Part shown: one piece after another, positions 2,988 through 28,728 of the stretch
How positions within the stretch are numbered: the first letter of the stretch is position 1
How the letters are laid out: every line of letters begins with the position of its first letter
Assembly: GCF_000328665.1 (NCBI RefSeq)
Contig: NC_019977.1
Location: 1,178,001 to 1,242,000 of the forward strand
From: Methanomethylovorans hollandica DSM 15978
GTDB taxonomy: Archaea > Halobacteriota > Methanosarcinia > Methanosarcinales > Methanosarcinaceae
Direction: 5' to 3'
Length of the DNA stretch: 64,000 bases
Made by a program: the position numbers and the translations under genes
The notes under the pieces: generated by a model
Database searches by the model: none
What the model was told of the DNA's origin: nothing
Seen by the model: the letters and a program-made list of their open reading frames with translations, nothing else

Positions 2988-3209
2988 ATATCTACAGTAG
3001 AGATAGATGTGAGAGGTCAGACGTGCCCGGTGCCACTTGTTGAATGCCGCAAAGCCCTTCGAAAAGCCTCTCCAGGGGACGAGGTGGTGGTAATAGGCAC
3101 ACATCCGGCATCAAAGAAGGAAATTCCCATGGCATGCGAGTCTCTTGGTCTTGATGTCCTGGCAGTGGAAGAAAAAGGCGATGAATGGAAGATCAGGATA
3201 CGCAGGTAG
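2988..3209 (+). CDS. tusA: TusA/SirA-family sulfur-carrier protein, probable non-ATG start
   Basis: The small protein carries the family signature DVRGQTCPVP, whose Cys accepts persulfide sulfur, and the PGDEVVV strand of the TusA alpha/beta fold. The only conventional in-frame start, GTG at 3009, would remove the first beta strand. An ATA at 2988 gives MSTVEIDVRGQTCP, the usual family N-terminus, and lies four bases after GGTGA, the same spacing as the iscU start at 4831. An in-frame stop at 2973 excludes longer forms. TusA relays sulfur in tRNA thiolation or cofactor synthesis. It is first in an operon with dsrE-like, iscS-like and iscU genes. Confidence 0.8.
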   Translation: MSTVEIDVRGQTCPVPLVECRKALRKASPGDEVVVIGTHPASKKEIPMACESLGLDVLAVEEKGDEWKIRIRR

Positions 3210-3219
3210 GTTTGATCAT

Positions 3220-3639
3220 ATGGGGAATAAAGCTGTAATTGTGGTCCATAGCGGGGATATGGATAAGATATATAGTGCTTTGATCATAGGGAATGGTGCA
3301 CTTTCCATGGGCCTTGAGTCATCCCTATATTTTACTTTCTGGGGTTTGCAACGACTAAAGAAAGGGGGTCTTGAAGCTGGCCCGCTTTCAAAGATGCACA
3401 TGTTGGGGCTCGGCAAATGGATGGTAAAGAAAAGAATGACCAAAGCCAATGTAGTTTCCCTGGAAAAGCTTATGCAGGATTATAAGGAGCTGGGTGGTCG
3501 GATCATCGCCTGTGAGATGACCATGGAGATAATGGGCATTAAGAAAGAAGACCTGCGTACGGATTGGATCGATGAGTACGGGGCGGTAGGTACATACATA
3601 CACGAAGCAAAAGATGCCAGTATCACTCTTTTCATTTGA
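3220..3639 (+). CDS. DsrE-like family protein
   Basis: The 139-residue protein begins MGNKAVIVVHSGDMDKIYSA, typical of DsrE-like folds (beta strand, then helix), followed by a Met/Leu-rich section and one Cys near position 95 (IIACEMTM) in the place where DsrE proteins carry their sulfur-accepting cysteine. The frame stays open upstream, but the ATG at 3220 starts exactly at the family N-terminus. It lies 10 bases after tusA and 12 bases before the iscS-like gene. TusA plus DsrE pairs are known sulfur-relay partners, so a persulfide-transfer role is inferred. Confidence 0.75.
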   Translation: MGNKAVIVVHSGDMDKIYSALIIGNGALSMGLESSLYFTFWGLQRLKKGGLEAGPLSKMHMLGLGKWMVKKRMTKANVVSLEKLMQDYKELGGRIIACEMTMEIMGIKKEDLRTDWIDEYGAVGTYIHEAKDASITLFI

Positions 3640-3651
3640 AGGAGATAGAAT

Positions 3652-4821
3652 ATGTTCGACAAGATAACTTATCTGGACAACGCAGCCAGCACTCGTCTGG
3701 ATGAACGTGTCCTGGAAGCTATGAAGCCTTATTTCTTCGATACTTATGCAGTGGCAACCTCAGAGTTTGGCTATTCCATGGGCATAGATGCAAAGGAAGG
3801 ACTCATGGATGCCAGAGGATCAATAGCGAAAACCCTTGGTGCATCGGAAGAAGAACTTGTGTTCACTTCTGGAGAAACGGAATCCAGCAACATGGCAATT
3901 AAAGGTGTTGCAGCTGCCCTCAGGAAGAAAAAGGGCTCACACATAATAGTATCCCGTATAGAGGACTTTCCGGTGCTCAATACAGCAAAGAGCCTGGAAA
4001 GGCAAGGATACAAAGTAGACTATCTGAATGTGGATAGCGAGGGAACTGTGGATCTTGACCAGCTTGGCAGCCTTATAAATAAAGAAACTGCATTAGTATC
4101 CATCCAGCATGCAAATCAGGAAATAGGTACATTACAGGACATCAAGGCGATCGCAGACATCTGCAACGAAAAAGATGTACTTCTGCATACTGATGCGACA
4201 CATACTTTTACCCGGGTGCCGCTGGACGTGAGCAAGATCCCTGTGGACCTGGTGACAATATCTGCACATACTATACACGGTCCAAGGGGAGTTGGTGCCC
4301 TCTATGTACGTGAAGGCACACCTTTGGAAAAATGGATGGACGGAGGCTACCAGGAATTAAACCGTAGAGCTGGTCTGGAAAATATCCCGGGTGCTGTGGG
4401 ATTTGCAAAGGCTGTGGAGCTTGTAACGCCTGAAGAAAATGCATCTCTTGCCAGGATGCGGGACCACACGATAAGCAAGGCTCTGGAAGACATTCCCCAT
4501 GTTACGCTCAACGGTAGTCGCAATGATCGCACACCACAGAATGCCAATCTCACATTCCATTATGTAGAAGGAGAATCCATGACACTGCATCTGGATATGC
4601 GAGGCTTTGCGGTGAGCACTGGTTCTGCATGTTTCAGCAGATCATTGGAAGCCAGCCACGTGATCCTGGGTATAGGCGGTGATCATGAAAGGGCACATGG
4701 TTCTCTGAGATTCACTTTTGGCAGGTATAACACTATGGAAGATGTGGATGCTATCCTCGGTGCCCTGAAGGAGATCGTGGAAAAACTTAGAGAGATAAGT
4801 CCGTTATATGCTAAAAAATGA
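3652..4821 (+). CDS. iscS: IscS/NifS-like cysteine desulfurase homologue lacking the PLP lysine
   Basis: The protein is full length (389 residues) and follows the class V aminotransferase / IscS fold from end to end, with YLDNAAST at the N-terminus, SGETESSN near 73-80 and the active cysteine in STGSACFS (Cys327). Key cofactor residues are replaced: the usual SGHK/SSHK lysine is Thr207 (SAHTIHGPRG), the PLP-stacking His is Asp105 (RIEDFPVL), and the usual Gln after DAT is His184. Known desulfurases need the lysine for the PLP Schiff base. An Archaeoglobus IscS is known to lack it, so this may be a structural partner of IscU rather than a desulfurase. It has a good ribosome site (GGAG) and sits directly before iscU. 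Confidence 0.85.
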   Translation: MFDKITYLDNAASTRLDERVLEAMKPYFFDTYAVATSEFGYSMGIDAKEGLMDARGSIAKTLGASEEELVFTSGETESSNMAIKGVAAALRKKKGSHIIVSRIEDFPVLNTAKSLERQGYKVDYLNVDSEGTVDLDQLGSLINKETALVSIQHANQEIGTLQDIKAIADICNEKDVLLHTDATHTFTRVPLDVSKIPVDLVTISAHTIHGPRGVGALYVREGTPLEKWMDGGYQELNRRAGLENIPGAVGFAKAVELVTPEENASLARMRDHTISKALEDIPHVTLNGSRNDRTPQNANLTFHYVEGESMTLHLDMRGFAVSTGSACFSRSLEASHVILGIGGDHERAHGSLRFTFGRYNTMEDVDAILGALKEIVEKLREISPLYAKK

Positions 4822-23430: not shown

Positions 23431-23627
23431 GATACTATCCTCGGCTGTCTCCATGGGCACGGGATATAAAACATCTTATGGGTACTGGCTGGTTTTTGTA
23501 TCGAGATCTACCATCCGAACTACAAGACAAATCTAACCTGCTCAGGGCACACGACAAAGGGCTCTTAGAACGCAGCACGGGGTATATTGGGCACGGGAAC
23601 ACTAGAAGGATGTGGCGGGTCAAATGA
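23427..23627 (+). CDS. Small winged-helix-like protein
   Basis: The 66-residue basic protein (WARDIKHLMGTGWFLYRDLP ... RAHDKGLLERS) looks like a short winged-helix. It overlaps the neighbours by four bases at each end. Family not recognised. Confidence 0.45.
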   Translation: MRYYPRLSPWARDIKHLMGTGWFLYRDLPSELQDKSNLLRAHDKGLLERSTGYIGHGNTRRMWRVK

Positions 23628-24073
23628 CAAAATCCCACACTGCAAAACCTATCGTTTTTAAGTGGACACCTGCTCGCATAAAAGGGGCAAAACTAGCAGC
23701 GAGCACCACAATGACGCAAGAAGAGATCGCAAAAGAGTGCAGTGTTCACAGAATGACCGTTAATGAGTGGTTTCAGGCTCAAGAGTTCAAAGAAAAAGTT
23801 GCAGAGTTAATAATGCAGGATGAGCGGTTTACTAGGCCGGGGCTGCTAAAAATAACCGGGGCGATACTGGATAAAAAAATAGAAAGAGCAGCGGAGGATC
23901 GGTCTACAGCAGCAGACTATATCAAAATAGTAGCCGACATTGCCGGGATAAACAAAGCAGGTAATGAGATCAATATATACAATGCAGTAGGCGTAGTCAA
24001 TACCCAGGAGGTGAAGGATGCAGTATCTAGGCTCTGCGAAAAGCTCAGGGAAGCAGACGACTCAACCGACTGA
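23624..24073 (+). CDS. Terminase small subunit
   Basis: The 149-residue protein has an N-terminal helix-turn-helix (GAKLAASTTMTQEEIAKECSV then RMTVNEWFQAQEF), a helical oligomerisation part and an acidic C-terminus. Position directly before and overlapping the large subunit by 56 bases supports the call. It should recognise the viral packaging site and feed DNA to the motor. Confidence 0.8.
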   Translation: MTKSHTAKPIVFKWTPARIKGAKLAASTTMTQEEIAKECSVHRMTVNEWFQAQEFKEKVAELIMQDERFTRPGLLKITGAILDKKIERAAEDRSTAADYIKIVADIAGINKAGNEINIYNAVGVVNTQEVKDAVSRLCEKLREADDSTD

Positions 24074-26546
24074 GGACGAGCTGCAAGTGTGGGCTAGCGC
24101 TCCTGCAGCCTTTGCCCGGTACTGTAGCGGGGGGCGGTGGTATCCGGCTAAGCATCTAGTAGAGCTATCGCACCGGCTTATGGATGTAGCTACCGGGGAT
24201 ATTACGCATCTCATGATATTCATGCCTCCAAGGCACGGCAAAAGTGAACTGACATCTAAGTACTTCCCTGCCTGGTACCTGGGGAAATACCCAGACAATA
24301 GGGTCATCCTCACAGGTTACGAGGCAGACTTTGCCGCTCAATGGGGGTACAAGGCTAGAAATATTATGCATGAGCACGGCCCTGCTCTATTCAATCTGAC
24401 AGTAGCAGGCAACTCATCGGCTAGGGATAGATGGGATATAGCCGGTCATCTGGGCGGCATGAGTACAGCAGGAGTAGGGGGTGCCATCACTGGTAAGGGA
24501 GCGCATTGCTTATCGGGTGAAACACGGATACATACTAATTTCGGTATGCTGCGAATCGACGAGGTGGTGCAAAAAGCTAAATACGATGAACGGTATAATA
24601 ACAGGTTAAGGGTGCTAGCATATGACCACCGTAACCAAAGAGCAGTATGGAAAAGAGTTAAAGCTACACGGATTGTCCGAGATAGGCGACTGTTGGAAAT
24701 CACCACAGCTAGTGGGGATAAAATCAGAGCTACCGATGAACATCGTTTTTTTGTGCACGAACGCGGATACACAGAAGCGAACCGTCTGTGTCAAGGAGAC
24801 CGGTTTATATCGGTCAAAGAGCAGATCAAACAAAACGTGCGCCCAATGTGGAGAAGCGAAGGGTGGCCGGGGTGCACTGTGCATGCCGTGTTACCAGAAG
24901 CTCAGGACAGTTCACGTAGTTCTGAAATGTTCGCTGTGTGGGGAGATATACGAAATCCCATTATACGATTACCGGAAAGCACTGGCAAGAAAACAGAAGG
25001 ATTACTATTGTTCAGTGGCGTGTTCTCGGAAGCACCATGCCATAAAGAATGCAAAACGTTGTGTCGTGTGTGCAGCACCGATGCCAGGGAAACCGAGAAA
25101 CATGTACTGTTCCACGGTATGTCGGGAAGCAGCGAGGCCACCGAAAAGGAAAGCGATATGTCCGGTTTGTGGGGATGCATTTTACCCAATATCTCACCGG
25201 ACCGCGCATTGTTCAAGACGTTGCGCCAATACCGCGCACTCAAAGAGAATGACGGGAGCTGGAAATTCTCACTACAAGACCGGGACAAGTTATGCGAAGT
25301 GGTTCGACGAGATGAGGCCACTCGTGTTGGAGAGAGACGGACACCGGTGTGCCATATGTGGCAGCAATTACAATCTTCATATCCACCATATAAACGAAAA
25401 TGTTGTGGACAACACCCCGACAAACTTAATATCAATGTGCCCCACTTGCCACATCATCCACCACAAATCGAATGCGACACCGTATCCTCAGTTACAAAAG
25501 TTAGCGGAAACGCGCACACGGTCTATGACATCCAAGTGGAAGACTGCAACAATTTCTTTGCTGAGAACATACTCGTCCATAACTGCCTGATAATTGATGA
25601 CCCTATCAAGAACGCAGAAGAAGCCAACAGCAAGACCTATAGAGACAAATCATATGATTGGTACAGATCCACAGCATACACACGTATAGAGCCGGGTGGG
25701 TCTGTGGTCATTATCCAAACACGATGGCACGAGGACGACCTCTCAGGCAGACTCCTTAAGGAAGAGCCGGAAAAATGGACAGTAATAAATCTCCCTGCAC
25801 TGGCAGAGGAAGGAGGGGATCAGCTAGGCAGGCAACCAGGAGAGGCGCTATTCCCAAAACGGTATGATGTACATGCACTCCAGCAGATCAAAAGGACAGT
25901 CGGCACATATTGGTGGAATGCACTCTATCAACAGCGTCCGGCTGCCTCAGAGGGTGCTATATTCAAGCGGCAATATTTCCAGTATTGCTATATCGAGGAC
26001 GGGCTCTATGTGCTCAGAGACAAGCGGGTCAAGTACTACGACTGTACTATATATCAGACATGCGATCCTGCAGTCTCAACAAAGGCAAGCGCTGACTATT
26101 TTGTTCTAGCTACATGGGCTGTAACCCCAGACCAGGATCTTATTCTCCTGGACATCCTCAGAACCAGGCTAGAAGGGCCTGACCAAATCAATCTATTCAA
26201 ACAGCAGTATGCTAGATGGAAACCAGCATACCAGGGCATAGAGGCGGTAGGTGTAGGCAAAACACTCTACCAAATGCTTGTGAGGGAGGGACTGCCTATC
26301 AGAGAGCTCAAAGCAGAGTCCGATAAAGTGACCAGGGCTCTTCCCGCAGCCGCTCGCATGGAGTCCGGCAGTGTCTATTTTATGCAGGATTTGCCAGGGC
26401 TAGACGAGTTTGAAGAAGAGCTCTTGTCATTCCCAAAAGGGAAACATGACGATCAGGTAGACTGTCTCTCTTATGCTGTGCAGCTAGCTCTGCAACAGTA
26501 CCAGGACTTTGACCTTAGCATGCTCATCAAAACTTTTCCGAGGTAA
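24018..26546 (+). CDS. Terminase large subunit containing an intein
   Basis: The 842-residue precursor starts after a 9-base perfect Shine-Dalgarno (AGGAGGTGA, 24006-24014), inside the small-subunit gene. Walker A is PRHGKS (about 71-76), Walker B LIIDD (524-528), and the nuclease part begins around DLILLDILRTR. An intein (residues 164-522) splits the motor domain, its C+1 residue being Cys523 directly before LIIDD. The extein of about 480 residues is a normal terminase size. It cuts concatemers and pumps DNA into the head using ATP. Splicing is needed for function, because the intein separates Walker A from Walker B. Confidence 0.92.
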   Translation: MQYLGSAKSSGKQTTQPTEDELQVWASAPAAFARYCSGGRWYPAKHLVELSHRLMDVATGDITHLMIFMPPRHGKSELTSKYFPAWYLGKYPDNRVILTGYEADFAAQWGYKARNIMHEHGPALFNLTVAGNSSARDRWDIAGHLGGMSTAGVGGAITGKGAHCLSGETRIHTNFGMLRIDEVVQKAKYDERYNNRLRVLAYDHRNQRAVWKRVKATRIVRDRRLLEITTASGDKIRATDEHRFFVHERGYTEANRLCQGDRFISVKEQIKQNVRPMWRSEGWPGCTVHAVLPEAQDSSRSSEMFAVWGDIRNPIIRLPESTGKKTEGLLLFSGVFSEAPCHKECKTLCRVCSTDARETEKHVLFHGMSGSSEATEKESDMSGLWGCILPNISPDRALFKTLRQYRALKENDGSWKFSLQDRDKLCEVVRRDEATRVGERRTPVCHMWQQLQSSYPPYKRKCCGQHPDKLNINVPHLPHHPPQIECDTVSSVTKVSGNAHTVYDIQVEDCNNFFAENILVHNCLIIDDPIKNAEEANSKTYRDKSYDWYRSTAYTRIEPGGSVVIIQTRWHEDDLSGRLLKEEPEKWTVINLPALAEEGGDQLGRQPGEALFPKRYDVHALQQIKRTVGTYWWNALYQQRPAASEGAIFKRQYFQYCYIEDGLYVLRDKRVKYYDCTIYQTCDPAVSTKASADYFVLATWAVTPDQDLILLDILRTRLEGPDQINLFKQQYARWKPAYQGIEAVGVGKTLYQMLVREGLPIRELKAESDKVTRALPAAARMESGSVYFMQDLPGLDEFEEELLSFPKGKHDDQVDCLSYAVQLALQQYQDFDLSMLIKTFPR
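24507..25583 (+). other. Intein in the terminase (359 residues)
   Basis: Splicing motifs are in the terminase frame: Cys1 with CLSGETRIHT (block A), ATDEHRFF with the TxxH of block B (Thr239-His242 of the precursor), VYDIQVEDCNNFF (block F) and ILVHN followed by Cys (block G, with the penultimate His and terminal Asn). The stretch between blocks B and F contains no endonuclease in this frame; an HNH enzyme lies there in the +1 frame. The middle in this frame has an odd composition (many Ser, Cys, His, Arg), as expected of a frame that is only being kept open. Confidence 0.9.
24622..25590 (+). CDS. HNH homing endonuclease encoded out of frame inside the intein
   Basis: In the +1 frame relative to the terminase, a 322-residue protein has four four-Cys zinc modules (Cys73/76/87/90, 103/106/130/134, 147/150/163/167, 180/183/197/201) and an HNH domain (about 236-281, VLERDGHRCAICG ... 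HIHHINENV ... CPTCHIIHH). The recognisable domain (about 24830-25465) lies exactly between splicing blocks B and F, where in-frame inteins carry their endonuclease. Its stop falls seven bases past the intein end. The start is uncertain: ATG 24622 has GGGTG about 11 bases before it and ATG 24736 is possible; a +1 frameshift from the intein cannot be excluded. Confidence 0.85.
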   Translation: MTTVTKEQYGKELKLHGLSEIGDCWKSPQLVGIKSELPMNIVFLCTNADTQKRTVCVKETGLYRSKSRSNKTCAQCGEAKGGRGALCMPCYQKLRTVHVVLKCSLCGEIYEIPLYDYRKALARKQKDYYCSVACSRKHHAIKNAKRCVVCAAPMPGKPRNMYCSTVCREAARPPKRKAICPVCGDAFYPISHRTAHCSRRCANTAHSKRMTGAGNSHYKTGTSYAKWFDEMRPLVLERDGHRCAICGSNYNLHIHHINENVVDNTPTNLISMCPTCHIIHHKSNATPYPQLQKLAETRTRSMTSKWKTATISLLRTYSSITA

Positions 26547-26548
26547 CT

Positions 26549-26782
26549 ATGGCGAATTACAGCACCAACACAGCCCCTAAACCAAAACTACATGCTACTA
26601 TAGAGGTCACTAATATGAAGTACTTGCAGGCTCTCAAAAAGAAACACGATGTGTCTCTATCGCAAGCGGCAGATATGGCTATCAAAATAGCTAGAGAGAT
26701 CCAATCTGATGAGCAGGCAGCAGAGAGGATAGCTGAAAAAGTTTGTCAGAAAATGCTTAAAAAACTAGAAGAAATGCAATAA
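26549..26782 (+). CDS. Small helical protein, possibly RHH
   Basis: The 77-residue protein has a TIEVTNMKYLQAL strand-helix start, then VSLSQAADMAIKIAREIQSDE, the spacing of an RHH fold, and a charged helical end. It begins two bases after the terminase stop and is the last gene before a T-rich terminator. Confidence 0.5.
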   Translation: MANYSTNTAPKPKLHATIEVTNMKYLQALKKKHDVSLSQAADMAIKIAREIQSDEQAAERIAEKVCQKMLKKLEEMQ

Positions 26783-27097: not shown

Positions 27098-28345
27098 ATG
27101 GAGATCAATGCAGCAGCAGTCACAACAGAGCAGCTACAGCAGGACTATGAGCTTATGGCAGCTGCATTCTCCACACGGCAGGACTATGTAACAGCTACCC
27201 GTTACTCATCTTTCGATACAGAAAACAGATTCACTTACTACTCACAGTTAGCAGCGTCTACCCCTCACGCTTCTACTTCTTTGATGAAGCTGGCTCTATC
27301 GCTAGTTAAGGGGCTCCGGTTCAGCAGCCCTACCAAATCACTGACAAAAGAGTTTACGGCCTGGAGTGATCACGTCAATTTCTTTGAGCAGGCGTATACT
27401 CTAGCTAGTTTGCTGCCAATGAACGGCACATATGCAGGCATCACTACAGGCACAGCAGCAGAGCTCAGGCTACAACATCTACTCATGCCGACTGTGACCC
27501 TAGTGCCTCCAGGTCAGAAACTAGGTGAAGGAGATAATGGTACGGTACTAACTGGCCCAATTGATAGAGTAATAATCAATGAAACCGATGACGAAAACAG
27601 AGTAGTATTAAAAGCTTCTCAAGTAGTGTATGGCTCCTTCAATGCGCATCTCAAGAAGCAGCCGGACATCCTGAATAGGAACACATTCGGCATCTACGGC
27701 ACTTCTCTTTTCGAATCGATTGAGCTCTCAATCAGGAACCTGCTAACGATAGACAGCGGCTATGTATCCTTCGTGAGGAAATACGGGCAAGGTAGGTATG
27801 TATATGACTTCAAAATGTTGTATGATGCCGTAATCCAAAAAGGCATGAGTCCTCAGAAAGCGCAGGAATTTGTGGATGCTTTCATGGAGAAGCACAAATA
27901 CCTGCAGGCAAACGAGGACATAGCCGGGGTGGGCATTGATGTCAAAGAACTCGATGCTAGCGGCTCTCTGGATGTAATGGCATTCAAGAAATCGCTAGAG
28001 ACTAACATCCAGATAGGATTATTCCAATCACCGCTTACTATGGGAGACAGCAAGGGCTCCACGTATGCGGCGGGCTACGTAGCTGAAGAGGATAGGATGC
28101 TAGTACTCGAAGGGCTGCAGCGCATAGTGAGAGACATACTACAGCAGGTCGTGGACAAGCGCCTCCTGCTAATGGGCAAACAGCCCGGTACGGTCTCAAT
28201 AGAGTTAGAGCAGCTATCAATCCCAGCCCTCACACTTGGGGATCTGCTTGAGCTATACAATACTTCAGCCATCAACAAAACAACTTTTGACCGGGTACTC
28301 TCTGAGAGATTCGGCATATCTGTTCTAGAGGAGGCAAGCAAATGA
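27098..28345 (+). CDS. Portal protein
   Basis: The 415-residue protein follows the terminase block and has the portal features GTYAGI, the long helix region near KLYDAVIQKGMSPQ-type residues, IQIGLFQSPLTMGDSKGSTYAAG with EEDRMLVLEGLQRIVRDIL, and a C-terminal LTLGDLLELYNTSAI. Twelve copies form the ring through which DNA enters the head. It is short for a portal, without the long C-terminal barrel extensions of some phages. Confidence 0.8.
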   Translation: MEINAAAVTTEQLQQDYELMAAAFSTRQDYVTATRYSSFDTENRFTYYSQLAASTPHASTSLMKLALSLVKGLRFSSPTKSLTKEFTAWSDHVNFFEQAYTLASLLPMNGTYAGITTGTAAELRLQHLLMPTVTLVPPGQKLGEGDNGTVLTGPIDRVIINETDDENRVVLKASQVVYGSFNAHLKKQPDILNRNTFGIYGTSLFESIELSIRNLLTIDSGYVSFVRKYGQGRYVYDFKMLYDAVIQKGMSPQKAQEFVDAFMEKHKYLQANEDIAGVGIDVKELDASGSLDVMAFKKSLETNIQIGLFQSPLTMGDSKGSTYAAGYVAEEDRMLVLEGLQRIVRDILQQVVDKRLLLMGKQPGTVSIELEQLSIPALTLGDLLELYNTSAINKTTFDRVLSERFGISVLEEASK

Positions 28346-28434: not shown

Positions 28435-28728
28435 ATGTACGTAATACCGGATACAGACTACACGATTAATGCTTCTGCTAAAACAATAACGCTAGCGGCA
28501 GCATACGCTACTCTAAGCGCAGGACAGATTACAAAAATTAAGGATATCACTACAGAAGAGATCCTCTATGATTCGGAAAGGGTCTCGTTTACGGGGCCAC
28601 AGATCTCGGTTGCTACGGGAGTAATCACCTACACGCAAGGAAACAAAGTGGCCAATACCGATAAGCTGCGCATAGTAGTTGATGCTAATTACTCAGATAT
28701 ATATCACCTCGATGGAGGGAGCGCATAA
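28435..28728 (+). CDS. Small virion-associated protein ending DGGSA
   Basis: The 97-residue protein is beta-rich (YVIPDTDYTINASAKTITLA ... VATGVITYTQG) and resembles short tail or fibre-associated domains. Its last five residues DGGSA recur at the ends of the proteins at 35628-36059 and 41526-41930. It overlaps the receptor-binding-like gene by one base, suggesting they act together. Confidence 0.55.
   Translation: MYVIPDTDYTINASAKTITLAAAYATLSAGQITKIKDITTEEILYDSERVSFTGPQISVATGVITYTQGNKVANTDKLRIVVDANYSDIYHLDGGSA

What the first reader, a model, noticed from the sequence alone, without database searches (positions are those of the whole stretch)
24507..25590. Homing endonuclease encoded out of frame inside a terminase intein
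The terminase large subunit has a complete set of intein splicing motifs in its own frame (Cys1 at codon 24507, TxxH, terminal His-Asn, Cys+1 before Walker B). An HNH endonuclease with four extra zinc modules sits exactly between splicing blocks B and F, but in the +1 frame (24622-25590, domain about 24830-25465). The terminase frame stays open across the same DNA, where several stops would be expected by chance over roughly 210 codons. This implies selection for two overlapping products, or an intein that moved its endonuclease out of frame while keeping the host frame readable. It may be a distinct intein architecture in archaeal viruses; similar overlapping cases may exist in the literature and must be checked.
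Basis: partly seen in the sequence, partly recalled or inferred. Interest (0 to 1): 0.95.

Follow-up and report, generated by a model that had tools for sequence, protein, structure and literature searches.

The report
Terminase intein with out-of-frame homing endonuclease
A self-splicing insert (intein) in an archaeal provirus's DNA-packaging gene carries its DNA-cutting homing enzyme in a second, shifted reading frame of the same DNA, and more than 30 related viral and proviral loci across Archaea and Bacteria keep exactly this overlapping layout, which had been remarked on before only for Brucella phages.

Summary
The terminase large-subunit ORF (24018-26546) contains a 359-aa intein (Cys24507 to Asn25583) with all splicing residues. 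A 322-aa zinc/HNH endonuclease ORF (24622-25590) overlaps it in the +1 frame. It is not an error or a recent frameshift: 34 distinct loci, from archaeal, actinobacterial, cyanobacterial and Brucella phages or proviruses, have the same +1 layout in TerL. They show 0 stops in the intein frame over 8,036 codons, where synonymous-codon shuffles expect 258.

The two frames divide the DNA. In the intein frame AlphaFold gives a confident Hint fold at both ends and a disordered 210-residue middle. In the +1 frame the pattern inverts: disordered start, then folded zinc modules, HNH and tail. In the core the HNH frame is under strong purifying selection, while the intein frame is near neutral but must stay open. 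Only about 36 tail codons encode folded protein in both frames. Most likely the endonuclease starts internally, is made separately and drives homing; this is inferred, not shown.

The layout is not wholly new: a 2015 brucellaphage paper notes an out-of-frame HNH inside TerL, and that element belongs to this family. The breadth, fixed frame and division of labour appear undescribed in the literature held here.

The parts
24018..26546 (+). terminase large subunit (TerL) ORF interrupted by the intein; N-extein 24018-24506, C-extein 25584-26546
   Evidence: 842-aa ORF; Terminase_6N/6C and psiM2_ORF9; phrog_38 4.7e-101; empty-site TerL homologues lack the insert
24507..25583 (+). intein, 359 aa, terminase frame; Cys1, TxxH, His-Asn, Cys+1
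   Evidence: Foldseek top hits are solved inteins
24507..24821 (+). N-terminal half of the Hint splicing domain (intein residues 1-105)
   Evidence: pLDDT 92-96 over residues 1-100; intein-frame dNN/dNS 0.26-0.65 in this stretch
24822..25460 (+). intein-frame spacer (residues 106-318): disordered, near neutral at amino-acid level, kept stop-free
   Evidence: nearly all of residues 107-315 pLDDT < 50; 0 stops vs 8.5 expected; omega near neutral
25461..25583 (+). C-terminal half of the Hint splicing domain, blocks F-G (residues 319-359)
   Evidence: pLDDT about 89-95; VYDIQV...HN conserved in nearly all members
24622..25590 (+). HNH homing-endonuclease-type ORF, 322 aa, +1 frame; stop TGA 25588-25590 lies in the first codons of the C-extein
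   Evidence: same ORF and ATG in L001
24608..24624 (+). candidate internal initiation site: AAGGGTG then ATG at 24622, one codon after an in-frame TAG
   Evidence: sequence; SD-like pairing; 26 nt around it identical in L001. Inferred, not shown
24838..25224 (+). four zinc modules of the HNH protein: about 24838-24891, 24928-25023, 25060-25122, 25159-25224
   Evidence: paired cysteine motifs; modules 2-4 nearly invariant across 26 members; pLDDT about 80-95
25348..25464 (+). HNH catalytic domain with its own CxxC pairs and His-His...Asn...His residues
   Evidence: C243, C246, H255, H256, N264, N268, C273, H277, H281 invariant in 26 members
25465..25572 (+). doubly coding tail: folded helices in the +1 frame, Hint blocks F-G in the terminase frame
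   Evidence: both frames pLDDT about 90; both frames omega about 0.6
23612..24073 (+). terminase small subunit, upstream neighbour (provirus packaging module)
   Evidence: phrog_2538 1.1e-09

Best explanation
A mobile intein in a tailed provirus's TerL gene whose two activities are encoded in different frames of the same DNA. Ribosomes reading TerL make a precursor in which a Hint domain (residues 1-105 plus 319-359) flanks a disordered 210-residue loop; the Hint domain splices itself out and restores TerL (inferred from motifs and fold). Other ribosomes start inside the intein, most likely at ATG 24622 behind AAGGGTG, and read the +1 frame to make a free-standing protein with four zinc modules, an HNH nuclease and a helical tail (initiation inferred). 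That protein cuts intein-less TerL genes at the conserved Walker B site, and repair copies in the whole element (homing, inferred from the class of protein, the sporadic distribution and the empty alleles). The intein frame over the endonuclease is kept only as a stop-free spacer. When the endonuclease is lost, the spacer shrinks by in-frame deletion to a mini-intein.
For: Same layout and +1 offset in 34 TerL loci. 0 stops in the intein frame vs 257.8 expected, and 0 vs 120.9 in the HNH frame; free-standing relatives of the HNH carry about 9% stops in that same frame (282 of 3142 codons). Selection is partitioned: HNH 0.17 in the core with the intein frame near neutral; intein frame 0.26-0.65 in blocks A-B; both about 0.6 in the tail. 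AlphaFold: intein ends ordered and middle disordered; HNH start disordered and the rest ordered; Foldseek matches the intein model to solved mini-inteins. +1-frame starts have stronger SD-like pairing than starts in the other two frames (mean -5.7 vs -2.0 and -1.9; Wilcoxon about 1e-5) and cluster 12-18 codons before TxxH in most members. The brucellaphage HNH gene, annotated at 3170-3856, has its GTG and stop at exactly those positions in L178. Hint and HNH distances agree better with each other (rho 0.70) than with TerL (0.46, 0.34), as for a unit that moves between TerL genes. Mini-inteins at the site, two with HNH remnants: L117, L182, L123. Empty alleles: L002, L003 and many more.
Against: Neither splicing, nor HNH translation, nor cleavage is demonstrated. 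Against synonymous shuffles the SD signal is weak (Fisher p = 0.03), so it may be partly a by-product of the intein sequence. No strong Shine-Dalgarno start is seen in a few members (for example L165, L167), and start positions are not strictly homologous (the window's is about 37 codons before TxxH). Relative to the matched control the intein-frame core may be under weak residual constraint. The single-clade placement of the HNHs has low support (33/80).
Confidence: 0.77

Rival explanations
1. The HNH is reached by programmed +1 ribosomal frameshifting from TerL, giving an N-extein/N-intein/HNH fusion instead of an internally started protein.
For: The +1 offset is the same in every member, as expected if a shift of fixed direction were used; some members lack a strong start.
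Against: Most members have an SD-preceded start at a similar place; the first 67 residues of the HNH ORF are predicted disordered; in the brucellaphage record the annotated GTG start follows a GGAG box. I did not search systematically for slippery sites.
Confidence: 0.14
2. Sequencing error or a recent frameshift: the endonuclease is really in frame.
For: Canonical inteins carry the endonuclease in frame (established knowledge).
Against: 34 loci from independent assemblies share the layout; the zinc/HNH residues exist only in +1 and the Hint residues only in 0.
Confidence: 0.01
3. It is a group I intron or other RNA element with an internal HNH ORF, not an intein.
For: Out-of-frame HNH ORFs are ordinary in group I introns (established knowledge).
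Against: No Rfam intron match; complete intein motifs and fold; the host frame is stop-free throughout in 34 members.
Confidence: 0.02
4. The +1 HNH is not a homing enzyme but a DNA-packaging partner of terminase, as suggested for HNH proteins next to terminase genes.
For: The brucellaphage authors considered this; the gene lies within TerL.
Against: It is always inside an intein, which empty-site relatives lack without losing terminase; mini-inteins have lost it; it tracks the intein better than TerL.
Confidence: 0.08
5. The HNH frame is a relic, open but no longer expressed.
For: No expression data are available.
Against: Strong purifying selection on the HNH frame (0.17), invariant catalytic and zinc residues; true decay is seen as internal deletion in L117 and L182.
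Confidence: 0.04

Closest known systems
Brucellaphage TerL with out-of-frame intein-encoded HNH (PMC4422536, Tevdoradze et al. 2015, citing Flores 2012 and Farlow 2014)
   Same: Same host gene, same site, same +1 HNH; locus L178 matches the published HNH coordinates 3170-3856 exactly, so it belongs to the family described here.
   Different: Reported as a brief remark on one phage lineage. No family, fixed-frame, selection, structural or initiation analysis. The window member is archaeal and its HNH frame has four zinc modules.
ShiLan domain and Pacc40 insertion: out-of-frame HNH in mycobacteriophage DNA methylases (PMC11855218)
   Same: Zinc-flanked HNH hidden in another frame of an insertion that keeps the host frame open; internal initiation proposed.
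   Different: The host frame there has no splicing domain and the insertion is thought to stay in the protein. Here the host frame is a complete intein in TerL. The window HNH found no mycobacteriophage record at 1e-5.
Actinobacteriophage inteins of 'non-canonical architecture' (Gosselin, Arsenault, Gogarten, bioRxiv 10.1101/2025.01.02.630785, cited in PMC11855218)
   Same: The title suggests related cases; Gordonia phage Clown is an actinobacteriophage and a member here.
   Different: Not held and could not be read; overlap unknown.
Canonical inteins with in-frame endonuclease, including mycobacteriophage TerL inteins (PMC5050341)
   Same: Hint domain, Cys1/TxxH/HN/Cys+1, insertion in the TerL ATPase domain.
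   Different: Their endonuclease is in frame and part of the intein polypeptide.
Group I introns with HNH ORFs
   Same: Endonuclease ORF independent of the host frame.
   Different: Removal is at RNA level; no intron signal here.

Membership tests
Intein (class 1, Hint superfamily) | Nucleophilic residue 1, block B TxxH, C-terminal Asn, Cys/Ser/Thr +1 | tested here: met
   Cys24507, TDEH, HN ending 25583, Cys25584; conserved in the alignments
Intein (class 1, Hint superfamily) | Hint fold | tested here: met
   AF2 residues 1-105 and 319-359 confident; Foldseek top hits are solved inteins
Intein (class 1, Hint superfamily) | Protein splicing | not testable with these tools
   No experiment available
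Intein (class 1, Hint superfamily) | Precise insertion with intein-less alleles | tested here: met
   Empty TerL homologues at the same point
Canonical full-length intein | Endonuclease domain in frame with the splicing domain | tested here: not met
   HNH is in the +1 frame in the window and every full member examined
HNH homing endonuclease with zinc modules | HNH catalytic residues and zinc-binding CxxC pairs | tested here: met
   Invariant in 26 members; PHROG HNH families
HNH homing endonuclease with zinc modules | Site-specific cleavage of the empty site and homing | not testable with these tools
   Only indirect: sporadic distribution and Hint/HNH co-variation
Brucellaphage-type out-of-frame TerL intein HNH | HNH ORF out of frame inside a TerL intein, homologous sequence and site | tested here: met
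   L178 found by family search, identical coordinates to the published ORF
ShiLan-type out-of-frame insertion | No splicing domain in the host frame | tested here: not met
   A complete intein is present
Group I intron | Catalytic RNA structure | tested here: not met
   No Rfam intron match in 24000-26600

The most novel reading that the evidence does not exclude
This is one ancient, widespread intein family ('frame-partitioned' inteins) of archaeal and bacterial tailed viruses. Its endonuclease has always been a separately initiated +1-frame protein. The intein frame beneath it is selected only to remain an open, disordered linker, and the shared C-terminal tail encodes two different folded structures at once.
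Probability: 0.6. Interest if true: 0.85.

Novelty: new member of a known kind. Interest (0 to 1): 0.72.

Why it matters
Endonuclease and splicing domains of inteins are taught as one polypeptide. Here a selfish element keeps them in two frames of the same DNA over deep divergence, with a frame choice that appears fixed across viruses of Archaea, Actinomycetota, Cyanobacteria and Brucella. That makes several questions directly testable: how an overlapping gene is started inside another gene, how far a protein can be neutral in sequence yet required to be open, and whether uncoupling the endonuclease from splicing (dose, folding, independent loss) is what preserves the layout. It also exposes an annotation gap: in the Gordonia phage Clown and Synechococcus phage S-EIV1 records only the terminase is annotated there, so homing endonucleases are being missed.

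Tried and rejected
Single-protein search of viral contigs with the HNH found nothing; alignments were needed. Alignment A7 was too divergent for a genome scan. The first divergence script was wrong because MAFFT dropped '*' characters; one search is void and one search replaces it. A first control used the wrong relative frame and was repeated with the matched one. PDB sequence search with the HNH profile gave only weak, mostly irrelevant hits, and PDB Foldseek of the HNH model gave nothing at E <= 0.001. PF03354 (another TerL family) found nothing in the host genome. L092 looked like a possible broken member but is a free-standing HNH. The search of 112 genomes of the host's family found no second copy. 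A brucellaphage record was not in the phage collection. The preprint most likely to overlap is not held.

Full report
WHAT IS THERE. The window lies in contig C2 of a 2.7-Mb, two-contig genome. A Methanosaeta/Methanothrix genome holding a relative is of the same class, so the host is archaeal. A small-terminase gene (23612-24073) is followed by the TerL ORF 24018-26546. Within it the intein runs from Cys24507 to Asn25583, with TDEH in block B, terminal His-Asn, and Cys+1 directly before LIIDDP. Pfam and NCBIfam intein models pass their cut-offs. The 322-aa ORF 24622-25590 in the +1 frame carries four paired-cysteine zinc modules, an HNH domain and a helical tail. Its stop codon TGA (25588-25590) lies in the first codons of the C-extein.

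IT IS A FAMILY. Viral contig L001 has the same two ORFs with the same ATG and the same 322-aa length (49% identical in the intein frame, 68% in the HNH frame). Gordonia phage Clown and Synechococcus phage S-EIV1 have it too. Further searches brought the total to 34 distinct loci, including a Methanosaeta MAG and a Streptomyces glaucescens genome. In every full member the HNH is +1 relative to the intein, and the members with both junctions examined are inserted before the Walker B [LI]IDDP-type motif of TerL. Intein-less TerL homologues show the empty site. Mini-inteins at the same site (L117, L182, L123) have lost the HNH; L117 and L182 keep +1-frame remnants. No in-frame version of this HNH was found. 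Other inteins with unrelated in-frame HNH-like motifs exist (L121, L122).

NOT CHANCE, NOT ERROR. Fixing each HNH protein and shuffling its synonymous codons predicts 257.8 stops in the intein frame over 8,036 codons; none is seen. Fixing the intein frame predicts 120.9 stops in the HNH frame; none is seen. For the window alone the figures are 8.5 and 4.2. Nineteen free-standing HNH relatives carry 282 stops in 3,142 codons of the equivalent frame. Several high-GC members would be open by chance on their own (for example L114 and L115), so the case rests on the whole set and on the low-GC members.

WHO IS CONSTRAINED WHERE. I counted changes by their effect in both frames (an OLGenie-like count of my own). 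Core (zinc modules + HNH): HNH dNN/dSN 0.17 (0.13-0.22) in the Streptomyces group. Intein frame dNN/dNS there is 1.17 (0.91-1.51), and 0.91 for window/L001; a matched control frame on the TerL C-extein gives 1.38-1.51, and 0.92 in one pair. So the intein frame in the core is neutral or at most weakly constrained. In blocks A-B the intein frame is constrained (0.26-0.65). In the tail both are (HNH 0.63, 0.39-1.07; intein 0.61, 0.39-0.91).

STRUCTURE AGREES. AlphaFold of the intein frame gives pLDDT 92-96 for residues 1-100 and about 89-95 for the last 40, and under 50 for nearly all of 107-315; Foldseek matches the ordered part to solved mini-inteins. AlphaFold of the +1 frame gives disorder for residues 1-67 and about 80-97 for most of the rest. 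The best viral structural match is a Brucella phage HNH. Only about 36 codons (25465-25572) encode confident structure in both frames.

EXPRESSION. The +1 ORF opens one codon before ATG 24622, preceded by AAGGGTG; the 26 nt around it are identical in L001. Over 31 members the best +1 start has mean SD-like pairing -5.7 kcal/mol against -2.0 and -1.9 in the other frames (Wilcoxon about 1e-5). Against synonymous shuffles the excess is small (Fisher p = 0.03). Starts cluster 12-18 codons before TxxH in most members. Internal initiation is therefore the favoured inference, not a demonstration; frameshifting remains open.

MOBILITY. Hint and HNH distances correlate at rho 0.70, but only 0.46 and 0.34 with TerL. 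The HNHs of the family form one group in the tree against free-standing relatives, with low support. Both fit one element that moves as a unit. Splicing, cleavage and homing themselves are inferred from protein class.

PRIOR ART. A 2015 brucellaphage paper states that a putative intein-encoded HNH gene lies out of frame within TerL in all brucellaphage genomes (PMC4422536). Locus L178 (38,253-bp contig) has GTG and stop at the published 3170 and 3856 and falls in this family, so that element is homologous. ShiLan and Pacc40 are out-of-frame HNH insertions without an intein (PMC11855218). A preprint on actinobacteriophage inteins of non-canonical architecture could not be read. The layout is therefore not categorically new; its breadth, fixed frame, selection pattern, structural partition and decay series appear undescribed in the library searched.

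VERDICT. Observation confirmed; interpretation partly supported; ordinary explanations (error, intron, chance) excluded by the data at hand. Novelty is set to 'new member of a known kind' because of the brucellaphage precedent.

Noticed in passing
L184:2867-4654 (HNH 3255-3887) and L148:3139-5646 (HNH 3483-4127): Two further out-of-frame HNH ORFs inside DNA-methylase-like ORFs with no intein motifs seen by eye, resembling the ShiLan case; the HNH offset differs between the two.
   Followed up: partly
L112, L117, L182 (TerL Walker A); L174, L176, L180 (elsewhere in TerL): Several TerL genes carry a second, apparently ordinary intein at another site; in L117 and L182 the Walker A intein seems to have an in-frame LAGLIDADG-type endonuclease (by eye).
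   Followed up: no
L081 (MT771343) and L082 (KJ410740): In the public records of Gordonia phage Clown and Synechococcus phage S-EIV1 only the terminase is annotated over the intein; the +1-frame HNH is missing.
   Followed up: yes
L178 (IMGVR_UViG_2595698813, 38,253 bp): This contig matches the published brucellaphage HNH gene coordinates and belongs to the family.
   Followed up: yes
window 27098-28345 and 28435-28728: ORFs downstream of TerL have no PHROG match at E <= 0.001 despite lying where portal or head genes are expected, so the provirus's structural genes look divergent.
   Followed up: no
L121, L122: Other viral inteins carry HNH-like motifs in frame, from a different HNH type, a useful contrast to the out-of-frame family.
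   Followed up: no
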